A program made the position numbers and the translations under genes. The notes below the pieces were generated by a model that searched no databases, was not told the DNA's origin, and saw nothing but the letters and a program-made list of their open reading frames with translations. Shown one piece after another: positions 31,937-42,477 of a stretch of DNA of 42,477 nt. Source of the DNA: an uncultured Pseudomonadota bacterium (GTDB lineage Bacteria > Myxococcota_A > UBA796 > SXON01); contig CAJBVW010000056.1 of the NCBI GenBank assembly GCA_903959175.1, forward strand, positions 1 through 42,477, written 5' to 3'. Numbering within the stretch: the first letter of the stretch is position 1; each line of letters opens with the position of its first letter.

Positions 31937-32305
31937 GGGGGCGTACCGGTTTCGACGGGGTTCTGAATAGCCGAAGGGCGTGGCAAGGTGCGGGTCGCCT
32001 CTATCGATCCAAATGTAAGCTGCCAACAACAGCAACCACTTCAGCGAGGCCCTCGCGGCTTAGTTGAGGTCCCAGAGGCATAGCGACCACTGGGTGTCCG
32101 GATGAGCGTGATCGAACTCTTCTGGGCATATTTCAGATCCGCAGCAGACCCGGGGCCGAGCACCCGCCGGGCGAGCGAAGACTCAACAGGGGGCTCTGAC
32201 GGTGATCAAAGATCACGACACTCGCCGATGAGCTTTCGGCAGGCCACGTATCTCTGACTCTTGAAGGGGCTTCGGACGCGGGTTCGACTCCCGCCGCCTC
32301 CACCA
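31937..32305 (+). ncRNA. ssrA: tmRNA (trans-translation RNA)
   Basis: The 5' end GGGGGCG pairs with CGCCTCC before the terminal ACCA (7-bp acceptor stem with one G-U pair). GTACCGGTTTCGACGGGG is the usual tmRNA 5' sequence. The 3' part holds the T-arm (GCGGGTTCGACTCCCGC) and ends ACCA at 32302-32305, followed by a T6 run. The tag frame begins at GCC 32022 and reads ANNSNHFSEALAA to the TAG at 32061-32063; the ALAA end is the normal degradation signal. tmRNA with SmpB rescues stalled ribosomes. The length (369 nt) is normal. The 3' end serves as the attachment site for the neighbouring island. Confidence 0.95.
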
Positions 32306-33582
32306 TTTTTTCGGAAAGCGTCCAACGAAAGGACCTTTCCAGCGACCCGGTGTCCAGCAGGGACACGCGGGGGACACGCGGGATCGCGGCGCGGCCTCGG
32401 AGCATATCCGAGGTCGCGACGCTCCTCGTCGTCCATCATGATGAGGCGCATCGGGCCCGTGGTCTGGTCGTCGCCGTCGAAGCGCACGTCAGCGGGGGCG
32501 GCGGCCGGGCGACTCACCGCCGGGATGTGCTCCACGGCGGCCTTGAGCGGCAGCGCGTCCGGGTCGATGTAGACCCCGCGCAGGCCGAGGCTGTGGCCGA
32601 CGAGGAACTCGACGGCGTCCGAGTCGGCGCCGGCGCGCTTGAGCTCGGAGACGAAGCCCTTGCGGAAGGCGTGGTGGGGGCGGCCCTCCCAGGCTTCCTT
32701 GCGGACGCCGGAGCGCTCCCAGCCACGCTCGAGGTCGCGGGCCCGGGCCATGCGCTCGCGCGCCTTGGCGCGTTTGGAGGTGATCATCCACTCGTCCTCG
32801 CGCTCCCAGTCGCGGAGGATCGCGACGAGGTGCGGGGAGATCGGCACGATGCGGCCCCGCTGTTCCTGGCGGCTCTTGCCCAGCTCGCCGCGGATGGTGA
32901 GGCGGCCCCGGCCGAGGTCGACGTCGGCCCATCGGAGGCCCATGGCCTGCTGGCAGCGGAGCCCGGTGAAGCGCAGGACAATCGCGAGGCGCTGGTGCCA
33001 CCCGTCGAGCGCGCCGATGACCGTGTCCATCTCGGCCCAGGTCGGTGCGACGGTGGGGCTGGCGGCCTCGCGGGCCATGCGAAGGGTGCGCGGGGCGGGG
33101 ATCTCGGCGCCGGACTCGTCGTTGTCGTACATCCACTTCCACGCGAGCTGGCCGACCTCGACGATCTTCCGGCGAGTGGCGTCCGAGCGGTCGCGCCCAT
33201 GGAGCCCGCCGTGCTTGAGGTCGCCGTACCAGTCCGAGAGCATGCGGCGGGTGAGAATGGACGGAGGCAACGGCGCGCCTTTGCCGTGGACTTTGTCCAG
33301 GTAGCGCAGCCAGAGGTCGAGCCCGAGCGCGTAGCGGACGGCGGTCCCGGGACGGAGCACGCGCGCGCACTCCTCGGCGTAGTCCTTCAGGAGCGTTCGG
33401 ATATCCGTTTGCGGACGAGCGTCGCGAGGCTCCCATCGCCGTCCGAGGGCGAAGGCGTCTTCGACCTCGCGGATGAGCGCTTGGGCGGCGGCCTTGGTGG
33501 GGCACTGCCGGCTCCGCGCCTTGCCATCGGGATCACGCCAGCGCACACGCCACTCGCCGTTTCGTTTGTCGAGGCTCGCCAT
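32206..33582 (-). CDS. Tyrosine recombinase (site-specific integrase)
   Basis: A 458-residue integrase from the ATG giving MASLDKRNGEWRVRW; the frame stays open upstream but that stretch has no family resemblance. The N-terminal arm-binding part (about 1-55) is followed by a core-binding helical domain (about 58-175). The catalytic domain has Arg209 (FTGLRCQQAMGLRW), His304-x-x-Arg307 (HHAFRKG), His330 (LVGHS) and the nucleophile Tyr338 (GVYIDP). It cuts and joins att DNA through a phosphotyrosine link. The last 33 codons lie within the antisense of the tmRNA 3' end (from GGGGSRTRVRSPF on), so the C-terminal tail is made from the attachment site itself. Its end may differ in the excised circle. 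Confidence 0.9.
   Translation of the reverse strand: MASLDKRNGEWRVRWRDPDGKARSRQCPTKAAAQALIREVEDAFALGRRWEPRDARPQTDIRTLLKDYAEECARVLRPGTAVRYALGLDLWLRYLDKVHGKGAPLPPSILTRRMLSDWYGDLKHGGLHGRDRSDATRRKIVEVGQLAWKWMYDNDESGAEIPAPRTLRMAREAASPTVAPTWAEMDTVIGALDGWHQRLAIVLRFTGLRCQQAMGLRWADVDLGRGRLTIRGELGKSRQEQRGRIVPISPHLVAILRDWEREDEWMITSKRAKARERMARARDLERGWERSGVRKEAWEGRPHHAFRKGFVSELKRAGADSDAVEFLVGHSLGLRGVYIDPDALPLKAAVEHIPAVSRPAAAPADVRFDGDDQTTGPMRLIMMDDEERRDLGYAPRPRRDPACPPRVPAGHRVAGKVLSLDAFRKNGGGGGSRTRVRSPFKSQRYVACRKLIGECRDL
32274..32305 (+). other. Probable integration site (att) at the tmRNA 3' end
   Basis: The 3' end of tmRNA genes is a common target of tyrosine recombinases. Here the recombinase gene lies immediately beyond the CCA end and points towards it. 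The intact 3' end of the RNA would be restored by the element. No second copy of the T-arm/acceptor sequence was noticed in the rest of the window, so the other att site is expected to the right of it. Exact crossover bases cannot be set. Confidence 0.6.
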
Positions 33583-33827
33583 CGGTTCAGCTCCATCCAC
33601 CAGGGGTCCAGCTTCTCGGCCAGCCAGCGGTAGTCCGGGCGGCCGGCGTTCCCCACGTTGATCCACGGGGACGCGATGTGGTCGGGGTTCTCCGCCATGC
33701 GGGCGCGGAGGGTCTTGGGGTCGACGCGCAGGTGCGCGAGCACCTCCCGGTGCCGGAGCCATGTTGACGTAATGTGCGCGGCCTGGGGGGCTGGCGGGAC
33801 GTCGTGGCGGCGGGCGGGGAGGGACAT
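33387..33827 (-). CDS. Small HTH (excisionase-like) protein overlapping the integrase start
   Basis: A 146-residue frame. Residues about 18-85 look like a real MerR/excisionase-like HTH (STWLRHREVLAHLRVDPKTL, RARMAENPDHIASPWINVG, then YRWLAEKLDPWWMELNRW). The last 60 residues (Pro/Arg/Ser-rich) are read out of frame with the integrase over 196 bases and look like a by-product. The ATG lies five bases after the stop of the coiled-coil gene, so translation could be coupled. Functionally it may direct recombination or bind island DNA. Either the protein really has this tail, or a frameshift joins it to the integrase; sequence alone does not settle this. Confidence 0.5.
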   Translation of the reverse strand: MSLPARRHDVPPAPQAAHITSTWLRHREVLAHLRVDPKTLRARMAENPDHIASPWINVGNAGRPDYRWLAEKLDPWWMELNRWRASTNETASGVCAGVIPMARRGAGSAPPRPPPKRSSARSKTPSPSDGDGSLATLVRKRISERS

Positions 33828-35363: not shown

Positions 35364-35618
35364 CTACCCCTTGGCCTTCCGAGCTGCGTACACCTTGTCG
35401 AGGTGCGCCTCGAGGTCGATCCGCTTCACCGGGCGTCGGCCGGGGTACGCCAGCGCGTCGGCCTTGAGCGTCGCGATGCTCGTCGGGTTGTTCGCGTAGC
35501 CGCGCGTGGTGATGTAGTGGTGCACGAAGCTCGATACCTCGTGCGGCTCGGTGAGCGCGACCCACTGCTGGTCGATGGGTCCGCGGATGCTGGAGTTGTC
35601 GTTGTCGGGCCAGGGCAT
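35364..35618 (-). CDS. 84-residue protein of unknown function, behind a sigma-54 promoter
   Basis: The protein reads MPWPDNDNSSIRGPIDQQWV, then ALTEPHEVSSFVHHYITTRG, then YANNPTSIATLKADALAYPG and a basic C-terminal helix (VKRIDLEAHLDKVYAARKAK). It is soluble, with a central helical pair and a positively charged tail. I recognise no family. A GAGG ribosome-binding site lies about seven bases upstream. It is preceded by a near-consensus sigma-54 promoter and by a pair of sites shared with the restriction operon, so it is probably co-activated with it. Possible roles include a small effector or an anti-restriction/modulator protein, but none is supported by motif. Confidence 0.65.
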   Translation of the reverse strand: MPWPDNDNSSIRGPIDQQWVALTEPHEVSSFVHHYITTRGYANNPTSIATLKADALAYPGRRPVKRIDLEAHLDKVYAARKAKG

Positions 35619-35670: not shown

Positions 35671-35686
35671 AGCACAGCCCGTGCCA
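35671..35686 (-). promoter_or_regulatory. Sigma-54 (-24/-12) promoter before the 84-residue gene
   Basis: Read on the minus strand: TGGCACG-GGCT-GTGCT. The -24 element is perfect (TGGCACG); the -12 element has GTGCT against TTGCT. GG and GC are separated by exactly ten bases, the required spacing. Transcription would begin near 35659, about 40 bases before the ATG at 35618. Confidence 0.75.
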
Positions 35687-35726: not shown

Positions 35727-35760
35727 GCAGAAGACGCTTCACATGTGCAGACTACTCTGC
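35727..35760 (-). promoter_or_regulatory. Pair of putative activator (enhancer) sites for the 84-residue gene promoter
   Basis: GCAGACTACTCTGC (35747-35760) is a perfect GCAG-N6-CTGC inverted repeat. GCAGAAGACGCTTC (35727-35740), exactly 20 bases away, is the same motif with one mismatch (CTTC for CTGC). They lie about 40-90 bases upstream of the -24 element, partly in the 3' end of the activator gene. The same motif occurs twice at 37273-37306. Confidence 0.65.
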
Positions 35761-37263
35761 GTCGGCCGAGTCGATCCCCAACTGCCGCATCCAGTCCGTC
35801 ACCGACTGCCGGCCGATCCCGATCAGCTCCCCCGCCTCGACTTTTCGCCCGCGCGTCTGCCGCAGCGCACGAACCAGGTAGTGCCGTCGCACATCGTCCA
35901 CGAGCTCCTTGACCTGGAGGCCGTCGCCCAGGGGCCGCTCGAGGATGCCGTCGCCGCTCGCCTTTGGTACGGACAGGAGCTCCACGTCGTCCGCCTCGAT
36001 GGTGGTCCCAGTGGACCAGATGGTGGCGCGCACGAGCGTGTTCTGGAGCTCGCGGACGTTCCCGGGCCAGTCGTGCTCGGTCAGCTTCTTCCTCGCGCCG
36101 TTCGACAAGCGACGGCGCTGGTACCCCGGTCGCCCCGCGGCCTTCTCGTTGATCTGCTCCAGCAGCGTGTCGATCATCACCTGGAGGTCAGCCTTCCGTT
36201 CCCGAAGCGCTGGAATCCGCAGGATCGCCACAGCCAGGCGGTAGTAGAGGTCCTCGCGGAACGTGCCGTCCGCGACCATCCGAGCGAGGTCCCGGTGCGT
36301 GGCGGCGACGACCCGCACATCGACCCGGCGCGTGGTCTGAGCGCCAACGGGCTGCACCTCCCCTCGCTCCAGCACCCGAAGCAGCTTCGACTGCGCGCTC
36401 AAGGGCAGCTCGCCGATCTCGTCCAAGAACAGGGTGGACCCATTGGCCGCCTCGAACGCGCCGACATGGTCCTTGTCCGCACCGGTGAAGGCCCCTCTCA
36501 TGTGGCCGAACAGCGTAGACTCGACCAGGTCCTTTGGAATGGCGCCGCAGTTCCTTAGGTGCAGGGTCTTGCCGGCACGAGGGCTGGCGTCATGCATCCC
36601 TCGAGCGAACAGCTCTTTCCCTGTGCCAGACTCCCCGAAGATCAGGACCGGCACCTCCCGCTCGGCCACCCGTCCCGCCCGCGTGATCAGCGCCTCCATC
36701 GCCTTCGACCGGTAGACGATGTCCCCGAACGCCCCGCTGGCCCTGCCGGCACCGAGGTCGGCCAACACGCGGTCGGAGGCGCGCAATGCGTCGGGAAGGA
36801 ACTCCGTGAACACGTCGAAGGGCACGGTGGCCTCGACGACGCCCGCCTCGACGGAGGAGTTCGTGAGTCGCGCGCGATGCGGCCCTCGCCCAGCGAGGAT
36901 CCAGACCGCAGTCATCGCCGGGGTGCCGGAGCTCAGGTTGAACGTCGGCTCGGTCTCCTCGGTGAGCGTCTCCTCCAGGACCTTCCTCACGCCCGCGTAG
37001 ATCTGGCCGAAGTGCATGGGCTGGTCGAGGGGCACATCGCGGCAGTCGACTGAGACGCCCGCCCGCTCTCGGAGCCAAGTCACGTAGGCGTCCAGACTGG
37101 CCGCGTCGAACAGATCGCTCCCCGCCTTGGGGTCGCGAAGCAGTACCGCGCCACGCAGGTCGAGCCGCGCATCGAGTAGGGTCGCCGCCAGGGCGCCGGT
37201 CTGACCGGCGCGCGCCAGCTTGATGTCCGCGGCGCCGATCCAGCTGTAGAGGACGTTGCTCAT
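35752..37263 (-). CDS. CARF-domain sigma-54 activator (RtcR-like bEBP)
   Basis: A 503-residue bacterial enhancer-binding protein. Residues 1-160 form a CARF-like sensor: [11 protein letters not shown] at the first strand, and [18 protein letters not shown] (108-125) corresponding to the ligand-contact strand and loop seen in RtcR (ITTGT in E. coli). The AAA+ sigma-54 domain (about 175-430) has Walker A GESGTGKE (210-217), the sigma-54 contact loop GAFTGA (257-262), Walker [10 protein letters not shown] (277-285) and [12 protein letters not shown] (399-410). A Fis-type HTH covers about 455-495. CARF proteins sense cyclic nucleotides or RNA ends. No rtcA/rtcB RNA-repair genes are adjacent; instead sigma-54 promoters flank it on both sides, before hsdR and before the 84-residue gene. 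The GAFTGA loop indicates a genuine activator. Confidence 0.88.
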
Positions 37264-37272
37264 ACGGGCTCC

Positions 37273-37306
37273 GCAGAGAATACTGCCATAGGGCAGAGCA
37301 AGCTGC
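37273..37306. promoter_or_regulatory. Pair of putative activator (enhancer) sites between the CARF activator and hsdR
   Basis: GCAGAGAATACTGC (37273-37286) and GCAGAGCAAGCTGC (37293-37306) are two perfect GCAG-N6-CTGC inverted repeats, starts exactly 20 bases apart, two helical turns. They lie about 90-120 bases before the hsdR sigma-54 promoter, a typical enhancer distance, and 10-43 bases from the activator's own ATG. Confidence 0.7.
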
Positions 37307-37333
37307 CTCTATCGGGCGCGAGAAACACGTCAA
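37306..37333 (-). promoter_or_regulatory. Possible sigma-70-type promoter of the CARF activator gene
   Basis: On the minus strand: TTGACG (37333-37328), 16 bases, TAGAGG (37311-37306). Transcription would start near 37299, inside the second enhancer-like site, so binding there could repress the activator's own synthesis. Confidence 0.4.
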
Positions 37334-37394
37334 GAACCGCGGACCTAGGAAGGATGACTGGTTGGACCGCACCTTTCCACGCAGCGTTCAGCGC

Positions 37395-37410
37395 TGGCAC
37401 GGATCCTGCT
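37395..37410 (+). promoter_or_regulatory. Sigma-54 (-24/-12) promoter before hsdR
   Basis: TGGCACG-GATC-CTGCT matches TGGCACG-N4-TTGCT at all but one base. GG (37396-37397) and GC (37408-37409) are ten bases apart as required. Predicted start near 37421, giving a leader of about 160 bases before the hsdR ATG. Confidence 0.85.
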
Positions 37411-37422
37411 AACGGTGGGCGA

Positions 37423-37453
37423 GCGCCGAACGTCCTCAGGGCCGGCTCGGCGC
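37423..37453 (+). other. 5' leader hairpin of the hsdR transcript
   Basis: GCGCCGA (37423-37429) pairs with TCGGCGC (37447-37453) at the very 5' end of the predicted sigma-54 transcript. It may protect the mRNA end or hold a regulatory structure. Apart from this, the 318-base gap between the activator and hsdR holds the promoters and paired sites described separately. Confidence 0.45.
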
Positions 37454-37581
37454 CGCCCCCCCACCCGCTCCCGTCCCCTCGCGCCAACCTCTCCGAGTTC
37501 ACGATGCCCTCCCCCCTCAACCCGCAGCCAGCCACAACCCGGTACACTCCGCCGGGCGCAGCCGTGCCGCCGAGGTGCATC

Positions 37582-40500
37582 ATGAATTCGCTCAACTTCG
37601 AGTTCCTGCGCCCACGGCGCCCCGCGATGGCGGACCTTGGCGGCTTTGCCGAACGCTACGCCTGGTCCGACCCCCCGTCGTCCCTCCTGAAGCTGCGCTC
37701 GCTGCTCGAGGAGATGGTCGCGTGCATCTACGCGGAGCAGCGCCTGCCGCAGCCCGAGCGCGCCGGCCTGAACGATCTGTTGCTCGAAGCTGTGTTCGAG
37801 GACCTCGTGCCCAAGGTCGTGCGCGAGAAGATGCACGCCCTCCGCCTCCGGGGGAACAAGGCCGCGCACGGGGAGGCAGTGCGGCGGGAGACGATCGAGC
37901 CGCTGCTGCGCCACGCACACGACGTCGCCTCGTGGTTCTTCATCACCATCGATGGCGGCCGACTTCCCGCGGTCGGCACCTTCGCGGTTCCGCCGTTGGT
38001 CCCGCCCGACGAGCAGACCAAGGGCGAGCTCAAGCGTGAGAAGAAGGCCCTGGCCGAGGAGCTGGCCCGGCAAGAAGCGCGTCTTCGGCAGGTCCTCGTC
38101 GAGCTGGAACAGGAGCGCGCGAAGCACGACTCGGAGAGCCGCGCCGCCAAAGAAGCCCTCTCCGAGCTCAAGGCGAGCGGCGAACGCGCAGCGGCCGACC
38201 TCAAGTTCAGCGAGGCCGAGACCCGGCGGTTCCTGATCGACACCGCCCTGGTGGACGCCGGTTGGAGCGTTGGCGCAAAGGGTGTCGACACCGACCAGGT
38301 CGGCCAGGAGGTGCTGCTCCACGGGATCCCGAACAACGCTACCGGTGATGGCTACGCCGACTACGTGCTCTGGGGCGCCGACGGCCTCCCTCTCGCGGTC
38401 GTGGAGGCCAAGAAGACCGCCAAGAGCGCCGAGCAGGGGCGCACCCAGTCGTGGACCTACGCCAACGCGCTCGAGCGGAAACACGGGCGGCGACCTGTGA
38501 TGTTCTACACCAACGGGATGGACATCTGGATCTGGGACGACGGTGCGCCCAGCGCGGGCTCACCGCCAACCCCGAGGAAGATCTACGGCTTCTACTCGAA
38601 GGACAGCTTGGAGTACCTCCTGTTTCAGCGCAGCAACAAGGAGCAGCTGGAGCTCGTCGAGCCGAACAAGGACATTGCAGGCCGGATGTACCAGATCGAG
38701 GCGATCAAGCGGGTGACCGAGCGTTTCAGCGAGGGGCACCGAAGGGCCCTCGTTGCCCAGGCTACGGGGACGGGCAAGACCCGCGTAGCGGTGTCGCTCT
38801 GCGACGTGCTCACCCGCGCGAAGTGGGCGAAGCGGATCCTGTTCTTGTGCGACCGCCGCGAGCTGCGCAAGCAGGCCGACGGGGTCTTCAAAGAGTTCCT
38901 GCCGGGCGAGCCGCGCATGATGGTCTCGTCGGCGACGTCGGCGGACCGCGACAAGCGCGTGTACCTCGCGACCTACCCGGCCATGATGCAGTGCTTCGAG
39001 AGCTTCGACGTTGGCTTCTTCGACCTCATCATCGCCGACGAGTCCCACCGGAGCATCTACAACAAGTACCGCGACCTGTTTCGGTACTTCGACGCCCTCC
39101 AGGTCGGCCTCACCGCCACCCCGGTGCGCCTCCTCGACCGCAACACCTACAGCCTCTTCGGCTGCGAGGACAAGGACCCGACCTTCAACTACACGCTGGA
39201 CGAGGCCATCAAGAACGACCCACCCTACCTGGTGCCCCCGAGGGTGGTGAAGGTCACGACGAAGTTCCAGCGCGATGGCATCCACTACAGCAAGATGACG
39301 GACGACCAAAAGCAACAGCTCGAGGCGCAGGCCGCGGACGCCGCCAACTTCGAGCATGAAGCGTCGGATCTCGACAACCGCATCTTCAACAAGGACACGA
39401 CCCGCGCCATCCTGCGGAACCTGATGGAGAACGGCATTCGGGACGCCCAGGGGAGCCTGCCCGGGAAGACCATCATCTTCGCACGGAGCCACAAGCACGC
39501 GGTCCACATGGGGGAGGTCTTCACCGAGCTCTACCCGAAGTACGGCGGGCACTTCTGCCGGGTGATCGACAACTACGATCCCAAGGCCGAGCAGCTCATC
39601 GGCGACTTCAAGGATCCGGGCAACCCGCTGCGCATCGCCATCAGCGTGGACATGCTCGACACCGGCATCGACGTGCCCGAGGTGGTCAACCTCGTCTTCG
39701 CGAAGCCCATCCAGTCGTACGTGAAGTTCTGGCAGATGATCGGGCGCGGCACCCGCTTGTGCCGCGACCTGTTCGGGCCGGGCAAGGACAAGACCGAGTT
39801 CCTGATCTTCGACCACTGGGGCAACTTCGACTACTTCGACGAGGAGTACGTGGAGGTGCAGCCTCCGCGCGAGGTCTCGCTCATGGAGCGGGTGTTCGTC
39901 GCCCGGGTGACCGTAGCGGCGACGGCCCTGGAGAAGATGGAGGAGGAGGTCTTCCAGCTCGTGATCGGGCTCATTGCTGCGGACATTCGCACCCTCCAGA
40001 CCTCCCGAGCGATCGACGTGCGGGATCGCTGGCGCGACCTCCAGACCCTCGGCGCCCAGGCGACGTTGGAGCAGTTCGCCGCCGCCACCCGCGCGGCGCT
40101 GATCGACACCGTCGGCCCCCTCATGCGCTGGGCGGACATCCGCGACGATGAGGACGCCTACCGGTTCGACCTGCTCGTGGCCGAGCTCCAGACCGAGCTG
40201 CTTCGTGCCTCCGGCCGGTTTGCCGACTTGAAGGGCCGACTGCTGAGCGAGGTGGACGCCCTCCAGAAGAACCTCAACCCGGTGAAGGCCAAGGCCGAGA
40301 CGATCAAGCGCGTGCACACGACGGAGTTCTGGGCGGGCGTCACCGCACTCGCGCTCGATGAGGTTCGGGCCGAGCTCCGAAGTATCATGAAGCACAAGGT
40401 GCGCGTGCGGCCGCCCGGACTGGACCCGCGTACTATCGACGTGAAGGACGGTGGCGAGGAGCGCCACCACCACGTTCCGACGTTCGAAGGGCAGGAGCTG

Positions 40501-40995
40501 ATCGCCTACCGGCAGCGCGTCGAGGGCGTGCTCAAGGAGCACTTCCAGGACAATCCCATCCTTGCGCGCATCCGGGGGGGCGAAGGGGTCTCCGACGCGG
40601 ACCTGGAAGCCCTCTCGCGGATGGTGCTCCACATCGACCCGCAGATCGATCTGAAGCACCTCCCGGTCCAGATCAACACCAAGGGCGACCTGCATCGCGC
40701 CCTCCGAAGCATCGTCGGCCTCGACGCGGGCGCGGTGGACCGGGCCTTCACGGCGTTCACGCACAACCACCTGGAGCTGACCTCGACGCAGTACCGGTTC
40801 CTGGCCATGCTCAAGGCTCACATCTGCGCGAACGGCGGGCTGGAGATCGAGCGGCTGTACGAGCCGCCGTTCACCACGCTGGACCCCAACGGCATCGACG
40901 GCATCTTCAAGGACGACGAGGCGGTCATCACCGAGCTGCTCGACATCGTCATCCGCTTCAACCTCCCCAATGTTTCCACCGGAACAGCATCATGA
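37582..40995 (+). CDS. hsdR: Type I restriction enzyme subunit R (HsdR) with N-terminal DUF4145/HEPN-like domain
   Basis: A 1137-residue protein. The ATG giving [16 protein letters not shown] was chosen for its GAGGTG site; an earlier in-frame ATG (37504) lacks one. Residues about 15-122 resemble DUF4145 ([20 protein letters not shown], then [14 protein letters not shown]), a HEPN-like helical unit with Arg90-x5-His96. A coiled coil follows at about 145-215. The nuclease domain has D260 and E275-x-K277 (VVEAKK). The SF2 motor has Walker A TGTGKT (395-400), DESH (486-489), TATPV and [16 protein letters not shown]. The end matches the EcoEI-type C-terminal domain. HsdR translocates and cuts unmodified DNA. 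The stop overlaps the hsdM start (ATGA). Confidence 0.9.
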
Positions 40996-42477
40996 TCACC
41001 GGCCCCCTCAAGAACGATATCGACAAGCTCTGGGAGGCGTTCTGGACGGGCGGGATCACCAACCCGTTGACCGTCATCGAGCAGATCTCCTTCCTCATGT
41101 TCCTGCGTCTGTTGGACATCAACGAGACACGGAACGAGAAGCAGGCTCGCCGCACGGGCAAGGCCGCGAAGTCGGTGTTCGGTCCCAGCGAGCAAGACCT
41201 GCGCTGGTCACACTTCAAGCAGCTCAGCGCGGAGGCGAAGCTTCCGCTCGTCCGCGATCGGGTGTTCAAACACCTGCGCGAGCTGGGCACCACCGAGCGG
41301 CAGGGTGGGCTGTTCGACGACGCACGCCGCTCCACTTGGCAGGAGTACATGGCGGACGCGCAGATGATGATCCAGCGCCCGAGCCTGCTGAGCCAGGCGA
41401 TCGACATGGTGGACGCCCTGCCGCTCGACCGCGGTGACACCAAGGGCGACCTTTACGAATACGTGCTGAGCCAGCTTAAAACCGCCGGGATCAATGGGCA
41501 GTTTCGGACGCCGCGGCACGTGATTCGGTTGATGGTCGAGCTGTTGGCCCCCAGGCCGGACGAGACCATCGCCGACCCCGCTTGCGGCACGTCCGGCTTT
41601 CTCGTGGGCGCGATGCAGTATCTGTTGGAGAAGCACACGTCTGTCGAGTCGCGGGTGGACCTCGGAGCGGACGAGCACGGGAATCCCCAATACATCTACG
41701 GTGGGGACGGGCTGGAGCCCTACCGGGACCACATCCAGAACCGGATGTTCCACGGCTTCGACTTCGACGTGACGATGCTGCGTATCGCGGCGATGAACCT
41801 GATGCTCCACGGGGTCGAGAACCCCGAGATCCACTACCGGGATACTCTGTCGAACTCGTTCCCGGAGAAGTTCCCTCAGTACGCGGAGGACTACTTCGAC
41901 GTGATCCTCGCCAATCCGCCCTTCAAGGGGAGCCTGGACTACGCTGACGTGCACGGGTCGCTGCTCCGGAAGGTCAAGACGAAGAAGACCGAGCTGCTGT
42001 TCATCGCCCTCATCCTCCGGATGCTGAAGAAGGGTGGGCGGAGCGCCACCATCGTTCCTGACGGCGTGCTGTTCGGCTCGTCCACCGCCCATGTTGCGCT
42101 CCGGCAACACCTGATCGACGAGAATCAGCTCGAGGCGGTGATCTCGTTGCCATCCGGGGTCTTCAAGCCCTACGCTGGGGTCTCCACGGCGATCCTCGTG
42201 TTCTCCAAGGGGGGAAGGACGGAGAACGTCTTCTTCTACGATGTCCAGCGCGATGGGTATTCCCTGGACGACAAACGCACGCCCGCAAGCGAGCGCACGG
42301 GACCGCTCGGGCCGTTGAAGGACAACGACCTGCCCGCCGTGGTGGCGGCTTGGGCTGGACGTGACGCAAGCACGCTCACAGATCGCGCGGCGCCTTGCTT
42401 CATGGTGCCGCGAGCGGACATCGAGGGGAACAAGTACGACCTGTCGATCAATCGGTACAAGAGAGTGGTGCGCGTGG
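40992..42477 (+). CDS. hsdM: Type I modification subunit M (HsdM), 3' end outside window
   Basis: The frame is open from the ATG overlapping the hsdR stop to the end of the window (495 codons), so the gene is incomplete. It begins [20 protein letters not shown] with the HsdM N-terminal helical domain ([20 protein letters not shown]). The methyltransferase has motif [10 protein letters not shown] (195-203), [18 protein letters not shown] before it, and motif IV NPPF (308-311), typical of N6-adenine methyltransferases. It protects host DNA and forms the core enzyme with HsdS, which is expected just downstream. The gene order R-M and the overlap show one operon under the sigma-54 promoter, unusual because modification normally has to be made before or along with restriction. 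Confidence 0.9.

What the first reader, a model, noticed from the sequence alone, without database searches (positions are those of the whole stretch)
37395..37410. Near-consensus sigma-54 promoter in front of a restriction operon
TGGCACG-GATC-CTGCT has the exact ten-base GG-GC spacing and one deviation from consensus. Sigma-54 promoters cannot fire without an ATP-driven activator, so restriction and methylation would be off until induced. Switching on restriction and modification together on an unmodified chromosome raises the question of self-damage, which the small gene or a delay might solve.
Basis: partly seen in the sequence, partly recalled or inferred. Interest (0 to 1): 0.8.

Follow-up and report, generated by a model that had tools for sequence, protein, structure and literature searches.

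The report
Infection-sensor switch for DNA-cutting defence operon
A bacterial DNA restriction (anti-virus) operon carries a real "locked" sigma-54 promoter next to the gene for its own activator, a sensor protein related to CRISPR signalling receptors; the same arrangement recurs in dozens of bacteria, so this restriction system is probably switched on by a danger signal instead of being always on.

Summary
The site is real and at the stated place: TGGCACG-GATC-CTGCT, ten bases between GG and GC, one deviation, predicted start 37421. By sequence alone it is unremarkable: with one mismatch the pattern occurs 50 times in the genome, no more than its reversed control. The divergent gene (35752-37263, -) encodes a complete sigma-54 activator with a CARF sensor domain (PADLOC RtcR_PspF2, E 1.9e-167; predicted fold matches Csm6 and Card1). 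Two tandem palindromes (GCAGN6CTGC, 20 bp apart) lie about 100 bp upstream of the site; the genome's only other copy of that pair with at most one mismatch precedes a second sigma-54 site at the other end of the activator gene. An orthologous locus keeps the site at the same distance (133 vs 132 bp). In 66 of 84 relatives a sigma-54 site lies next to the activator's stop codon facing the next gene (reverse-strand control 1 of 84); in 40 of 75 that gene is hsdR. hsdR homologues without the activator nearly all lack the site. CARF activators of restriction operons were predicted in 2014, so this is a strong new member plus promoter-level evidence. Whether methylation is also off before induction remains untested.

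The parts
37395..37410 (+). sigma-54 -24/-12 promoter of the hsdRMS operon, TGGCACG-GATC-CTGCT, predicted +1 at 37421
   Evidence: ortholog G292 keeps CGGCACGCTTCGTGCT at 133 bp from the activator start (132 bp here); family-wide sites
35752..37263 (-). CARF-AAA+-HTH sigma-54 activator (bEBP), 503 aa, RtcR_PspF2 family
   Evidence: PADLOC PDLC01995 E 1.9e-167, full length; Sigma54_activat E 2.1e-66; GAFTGA loop and Walker motifs present; residues 1-170 fold as CARF
37273..37306 (.). two tandem palindromes GCAGN6CTGC spaced 20 bp, candidate enhancer (UAS) of the hsdR promoter, centred at -141 and -121 from +1
   Evidence: only exact match of the pair in the 7.2-Mb genome; one perfect and one degenerate copy at the same place in G292
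35671..35686 (-). second sigma-54 site TGGCACGGGCTGTGCT, 66 bp past the activator's stop codon, facing an 84-aa gene
   Evidence: same side as the family's tandem sites
35727..35760 (.). second tandem palindrome pair (1 mismatch), candidate UAS of the second site, centred at -94 and -74 from its +1
   Evidence: the only match with one mismatch in the genome
35364..35618 (-). 84-aa gene behind the second sigma-54 site, function unknown
   Evidence: one homologue at 38% identity in G243, not beside an activator
37582..40995 (+). hsdR, type I restriction subunit (DUF4145, HSDR_N, ResIII, EcoEI_R_C)
40992..42477 (+). hsdM, type I N6-adenine methylase (continues to 42578 outside the window), overlaps hsdR by 4 nt
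37526..37581 (+). element just before hsdR, conserved in the ortholog (ACCCGGTACACTCCGCCGGGC; -10-like TACACT 37543-37548): possible second promoter, N-terminal extension of hsdR or RNA element
   Evidence: one exact copy in the genome; no sigma-70 site by the tool's consensus

Best explanation
The site is a functional sigma-54 promoter that drives hsdR-hsdM-hsdS, and perhaps the further defence genes downstream, under the divergent CARF-AAA-HTH activator. Proposed steps: (1) the activator sits on the tandem palindromes upstream of the promoter [inferred]; (2) its CARF domain holds the AAA+ motor inactive [inferred from RtcR]; (3) a danger signal made during phage infection or stress relieves this through the CARF domain, most likely an RNA end or nucleotide second messenger [inferred]; (4) the activator oligomer contacts sigma-54 through its GAFTGA loop and opens the waiting promoter [motif shown, act inferred]; (5) restriction, modification and specificity subunits are made together [gene order shown], with unmodified host sites probably spared by ordinary type I safeguards such as ClpXP restriction alleviation [established for EcoKI, not tested here]. 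A second, similarly built promoter at the other end of the activator gene co-induces a small gene [inferred].
For: Adjacent complete CARF-bEBP; CARF fold (pLDDT 90; Foldseek top hits Csm6, Can2, Cam1, Card1, ring nucleases, E down to 4.6e-7). Sigma-54 itself is encoded. Tandem palindrome pair unique in the genome, and its only 1-mismatch match precedes the second site. Ortholog with activator 71% and HsdR 76% identical keeps divergent layout, palindromes and a -24/-12 site at 133 bp. In 66 of 84 relatives from many phyla (64 of 82 without two duplicates) a site lies from -25 to +44 (once +102) of the activator's stop codon; reverse-strand control 1 of 84, random windows 1.8%, Fisher 2e-28; divergent sites 24 of 95 against 0. 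hsdR is the first gene downstream in 40 of 75. Control from the hsdR side: all 5 hits with an adjacent activator (window included) carry a site; of the other 17 only one does, in a genome with such an activator on another contig. Named examples: Azotobacter pAcX50d and a Pseudomonas luteola plasmid.
Against: No transcript, binding or expression data exist here. The motif alone is not above chance. The activator's HTH differs from the family's, so its target cannot be transferred from relatives. The palindrome pair nearest the activator start could be its own operator; the family's different palindrome also lies just before the activator start and not near the downstream promoter. G292 lacks the second promoter. 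The sigma-54 weight matrix was an approximation from memory of the published consensus.
Confidence: 0.85

Rival explanations
1. The sigma-54 promoter is real but is a booster: a weaker constitutive promoter close to hsdR (around the TACACT at 37543-37548) or inside hsdR keeps a basal level, so the chromosome is always methylated and induction only raises restriction.
For: The stretch just before hsdR is the best conserved part of the intergenic region in the ortholog and contains a -10-like TACACT. A constitutive methylase would avoid self-damage. The window's hsdR 3' end scores high for a sigma-70-like site relative to the rest of the gene (rank 0.92).
Against: No sigma-70 consensus match in 37200-37700 and no -35 at the right distance; across 26 loci there is no enrichment of sigma-70-like sites before hsdM (p 0.90, a weak test). 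In most relatives the site lies right next to the activator's stop codon with hsdR close behind, leaving little room for another promoter. The conserved stretch could be coding: ATG 37504 is in frame and kept in the ortholog.
Confidence: 0.35
2. Chance match: the 16-mer is not a promoter and hsdR is read from something else.
For: The pattern is no more frequent than its reversed control in window or genome.
Against: Adjacent activator, ortholog conservation, unique palindrome pair, family-wide placement, absence of sites at nearly all hsdR homologues lacking the activator.
Confidence: 0.04
3. The palindromes before the activator are its own autoregulatory operator, and the activator acts on the hsdR promoter from elsewhere or from solution.
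For: In relatives a different palindrome (CACAAGANNTCTTGTG-like) is enriched just upstream of the activator start and not next to the downstream promoter.
Against: In the window a second copy of the pair lies before the second sigma-54 site, at the far end of the activator gene.
Confidence: 0.15

Closest known systems
RtcR-like CARF-AAA-HTH activators linked to R-M systems (Makarova et al. 2014, PMC4012209; PADLOC RtcR_PspF2)
   Same: Same domain order, full-length profile match, adjacent type I R-M operon; the paper predicted sigma-54 activation of DNA restriction by a phage-induced ligand.
   Different: The passages read state an association and a prediction and show no promoter. Here the gene is divergent, with an altered HTH, its own palindrome pair and a second promoter.
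RtcR and the rtcBA RNA-repair operon (PMC7790460, PMC9650030)
   Same: CARF-AAA-HTH activator, UAS and -24/-12 promoter; the CARF domain represses until relieved.
   Different: Here restriction genes and not rtcBA are the neighbours; misses the NCBIfam RtcR equivalog cut-off (308 of 650 bits); signal unknown.
RtcR-associated CoCoNuT superoperons (PMC11090510)
   Same: RtcR-like gene at the head of long same-strand runs of defence genes that can include HsdRMS.
   Different: No CoCoNuT was recognised in the genes annotated here; the activator is divergent.
EcoKI and other type I R-M systems with ClpXP restriction alleviation (PMC4231737)
   Same: HsdR, HsdM and HsdS subunits; same self-damage problem.
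   Different: EcoKI self-damage is limited by proteolysis of HsdR; here transcription of the whole operon appears switched.

Membership tests
sigma-54 (-24/-12) promoter | GG and GC with 10 bases between, in TGGCACG-N4-TTGCW context | tested here: met
sigma-54 (-24/-12) promoter | rpoN in the genome and a bEBP that could act on it | tested here: met
sigma-54 (-24/-12) promoter | upstream activator-binding sites | tested here: inconclusive
   unique tandem palindrome pair in the right place; binding not tested
sigma-54 (-24/-12) promoter | RpoN- and activator-dependent transcription from +1 | not testable with these tools
   needs cells
RtcR_PspF2 CARF-AAA-HTH activators | full-length profile match and CARF fold | tested here: met
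RtcR_PspF2 CARF-AAA-HTH activators | GAFTGA loop and Walker motifs | tested here: met
RtcR proper (RNA repair) | RtcR equivalog score and rtcBA neighbours | tested here: not met
   308 of 650 bits; the neighbours are hsdRMS
Type I restriction-modification | HsdR, HsdM and HsdS in one operon | tested here: met
Type I restriction-modification | site-specific methylation and ATP-dependent cutting | not testable with these tools
   needs methylome and assay

The most novel reading that the evidence does not exclude
A widespread class of type I R-M systems is wholly silent, methylase included, so the host chromosome is unmodified until a CARF-bEBP senses infection. Restriction would then strike phage and host alike for a time: conditional autoimmunity or abortive infection, unlike an always-on barrier.
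Probability: 0.25. Interest if true: 0.88.

Novelty: new member of a known kind. Interest (0 to 1): 0.6.

Why it matters
Restriction-modification is usually described as a constitutive barrier. Here, and in dozens of unrelated bacteria, a type I operon sits behind a promoter type that cannot fire without an ATP-driven activator, and the activator carries a receptor domain of the CRISPR signalling kind. That turns a 2014 prediction into a concrete, testable promoter with a predicted start base, predicted binding sites and a predicted inducer class. It also poses a direct question: is the host genome methylated before induction, and if not, how does the cell survive switching the enzyme on?

Tried and rejected
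Motif counts alone: not informative. Sigma-70 promoter before hsdR: none by consensus. Internal promoter before hsdM: no enrichment in 26 loci. The element before hsdR as a repeated genomic motif: one exact copy only. The family palindrome as the window's UAS: absent from the window. The 84-aa gene as a known protein: no Pfam or PHROGs hit, and its homologue is not beside an activator. Several L033-L050 regions were taken with too little sequence on the hsdR side because a divergent layout was assumed; the larger set covered this. Four duplicate loci (L074, L075, L093, L096 equal L033, L036, L035, L037) were skipped, but one search was run before they were recognised; two of them (L074, L096) count twice among its 66 of 84.

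Full report
OBSERVATION. The 16-mer at 37395-37410 (+) is as described. Predicted +1 is 37421; hsdR most likely starts at ATG 37582, where homologues start. The pattern by itself is not rarer than chance in window or genome, so the claim has to rest on context.

ACTIVATOR NEXT DOOR. The divergent gene 35752-37263 (-) is a 503-aa protein: Sigma54_activat, GAFTGA and Walker motifs, full-length match to PADLOC RtcR_PspF2--CARF_AAA_HTH (E 1.9e-167). A model of residues 1-170 (pLDDT 90) matches CARF proteins in the PDB: Csm6, Cam1, Can2, Card1 and ring nucleases. The genome encodes sigma-54. On the 121.7-kb contig the only two matches with up to one mismatch flank this gene, each facing away from it.

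PALINDROMES. Two GCAGN6CTGC palindromes, 20 bp apart, lie between the activator start and the site, centred 141 and 121 bp before +1. In the whole genome the pair has one exact match (this) and one with a single mismatch: 35727-35760, at the 3' end of the activator gene, before the second sigma-54 site 35686-35671 (-). That second site faces an 84-aa gene of unknown function.

ORTHOLOG. In a genome of the same family (G292) the activator (71% identity) and HsdR (76%) are again divergent; a site CGGCACGCTTCGTGCT (two mismatches, GG and GC kept) lies 133 bp from the activator start (132 here), with one perfect and one degenerate palindrome at 20-bp spacing. The distance from site to hsdR differs by 33 bp, so the conserved spacing is towards the activator and palindromes.

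FAMILY. A profile scan of 84,980 species genomes gave 312 relatives of the CARF domain; 80 were kept, from many phyla. With 18 regions from the same phylum, 84 could be tested downstream: 66 have a sigma-54 site from 25 bp before to 44 bp after the activator's stop codon (one at 102), often directly abutting it, against 1 of 84 on the reverse strand and 1.8% of random windows (Fisher 2e-28). Two of these loci are duplicates, recognised later (64 of 82 without them). A divergent site occurs in 24 of 95 against 0 in the control. The first gene downstream is hsdR in 40 of 75; others tested include SNF2 helicases with a NOV_C domain, AAA_15 ATPases and an N6-methylase, but also proteins without such domains. 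In a separate search from the hsdR side, all five hits with an adjacent activator (the window included) have a site, one of them weak; of the other 17 hits one does, and that genome has such an activator on another contig. Some of those 17 are fragments, partial matches with an extrapolated start, or have short upstream regions, so the negative count is approximate. Annotated examples: Azotobacter chroococcum pAcX50d and a Pseudomonas luteola plasmid.

METHYLASE. hsdM is downstream of hsdR on the same strand in all 35 loci where both are seen, within 120 nt in 28. A simple scan gave no sign of a sigma-70 promoter before hsdM (p 0.90, weak test). In the window and its ortholog the stretch before hsdR is conserved and holds a -10-like TACACT; it may be a basal promoter or an N-terminal extension. 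So co-transcription is well supported and silence of the methylase is not shown.

MECHANISM AND PRIOR ART. Makarova et al. (PMC4012209) predicted that RtcR-like CARF-AAA-HTH proteins linked to R-M systems are sigma-54 activators sensing a phage-induced ligand; the CoCoNuT study (PMC11090510) reports RtcR homologues at the head of superoperons that can include HsdRMS. In RtcR the CARF domain represses until relieved; tRNA fragments with cyclic phosphate bind it (PMC7790460), though in E. coli they did not suffice in vitro and RtcAB were needed (PMC9650030). The ligand here is unknown. What this work adds is promoter-level evidence across the family and in this locus. In the papers found by six searches I saw no such promoter survey; most subscription journals are not in that library.

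SETTING. An integrase gene (32206-33762 -) sits at the tmRNA gene (31937-32305 +), and 22 bp of the tmRNA end recur at contig position 96859-96880, which suggests a 64.6-kb element. Beyond hsdS it carries AAA_15, Zac-like, Wadjet-like and Druantia/DISARM-like genes.

Noticed in passing
window 31937-32305 and contig C56:96859-96880: tmRNA gene beside an integrase gene; 22 bp of the tmRNA end recur 64.6 kb away, suggesting an integrated element that carries the whole defence cluster.
   Followed up: partly
L141 and L142 (contig C56:59000-98000): Further defence-like genes in the same element: JetC-like (Wadjet), DruE-like, DpdE/DrmD-like helicase, Eco57I- and DrmMI-like methylases, Schlafen AlbA_2, a second integrase.
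   Followed up: partly
window 35364-35618 (-): 84-aa gene behind the second sigma-54 site; a 38% homologue in G243 (L140:1650-1886) without an activator nearby.
   Followed up: partly
L009:6664-6679 (contig C232:10663-10678): The identical 16-mer TGGCACGGATCCTGCT lies between genes, about 28 bp before an ATG: another likely sigma-54 promoter.
   Followed up: partly
L162, about 128 bp before the hsdR start: hsdR homologue with a sigma-54 site (TGGCACGCCTCGTGCA) but no activator in the adjacent 1.5 kb; its genome G157 has a CARF activator on another contig, so action in trans is possible.
   Followed up: partly
L129, L079, L044 after the activator stop: Downstream sites with a good TGGCACG but a weak -12 element (GA instead of GC); several other loci end in TTGAA.
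   Followed up: no
L036:4207-4836 (same as L075): Activator reading frame broken after 209 aa in front of an hsdR 66% identical to the window's; sequencing error or decay not resolved.
   Followed up: no
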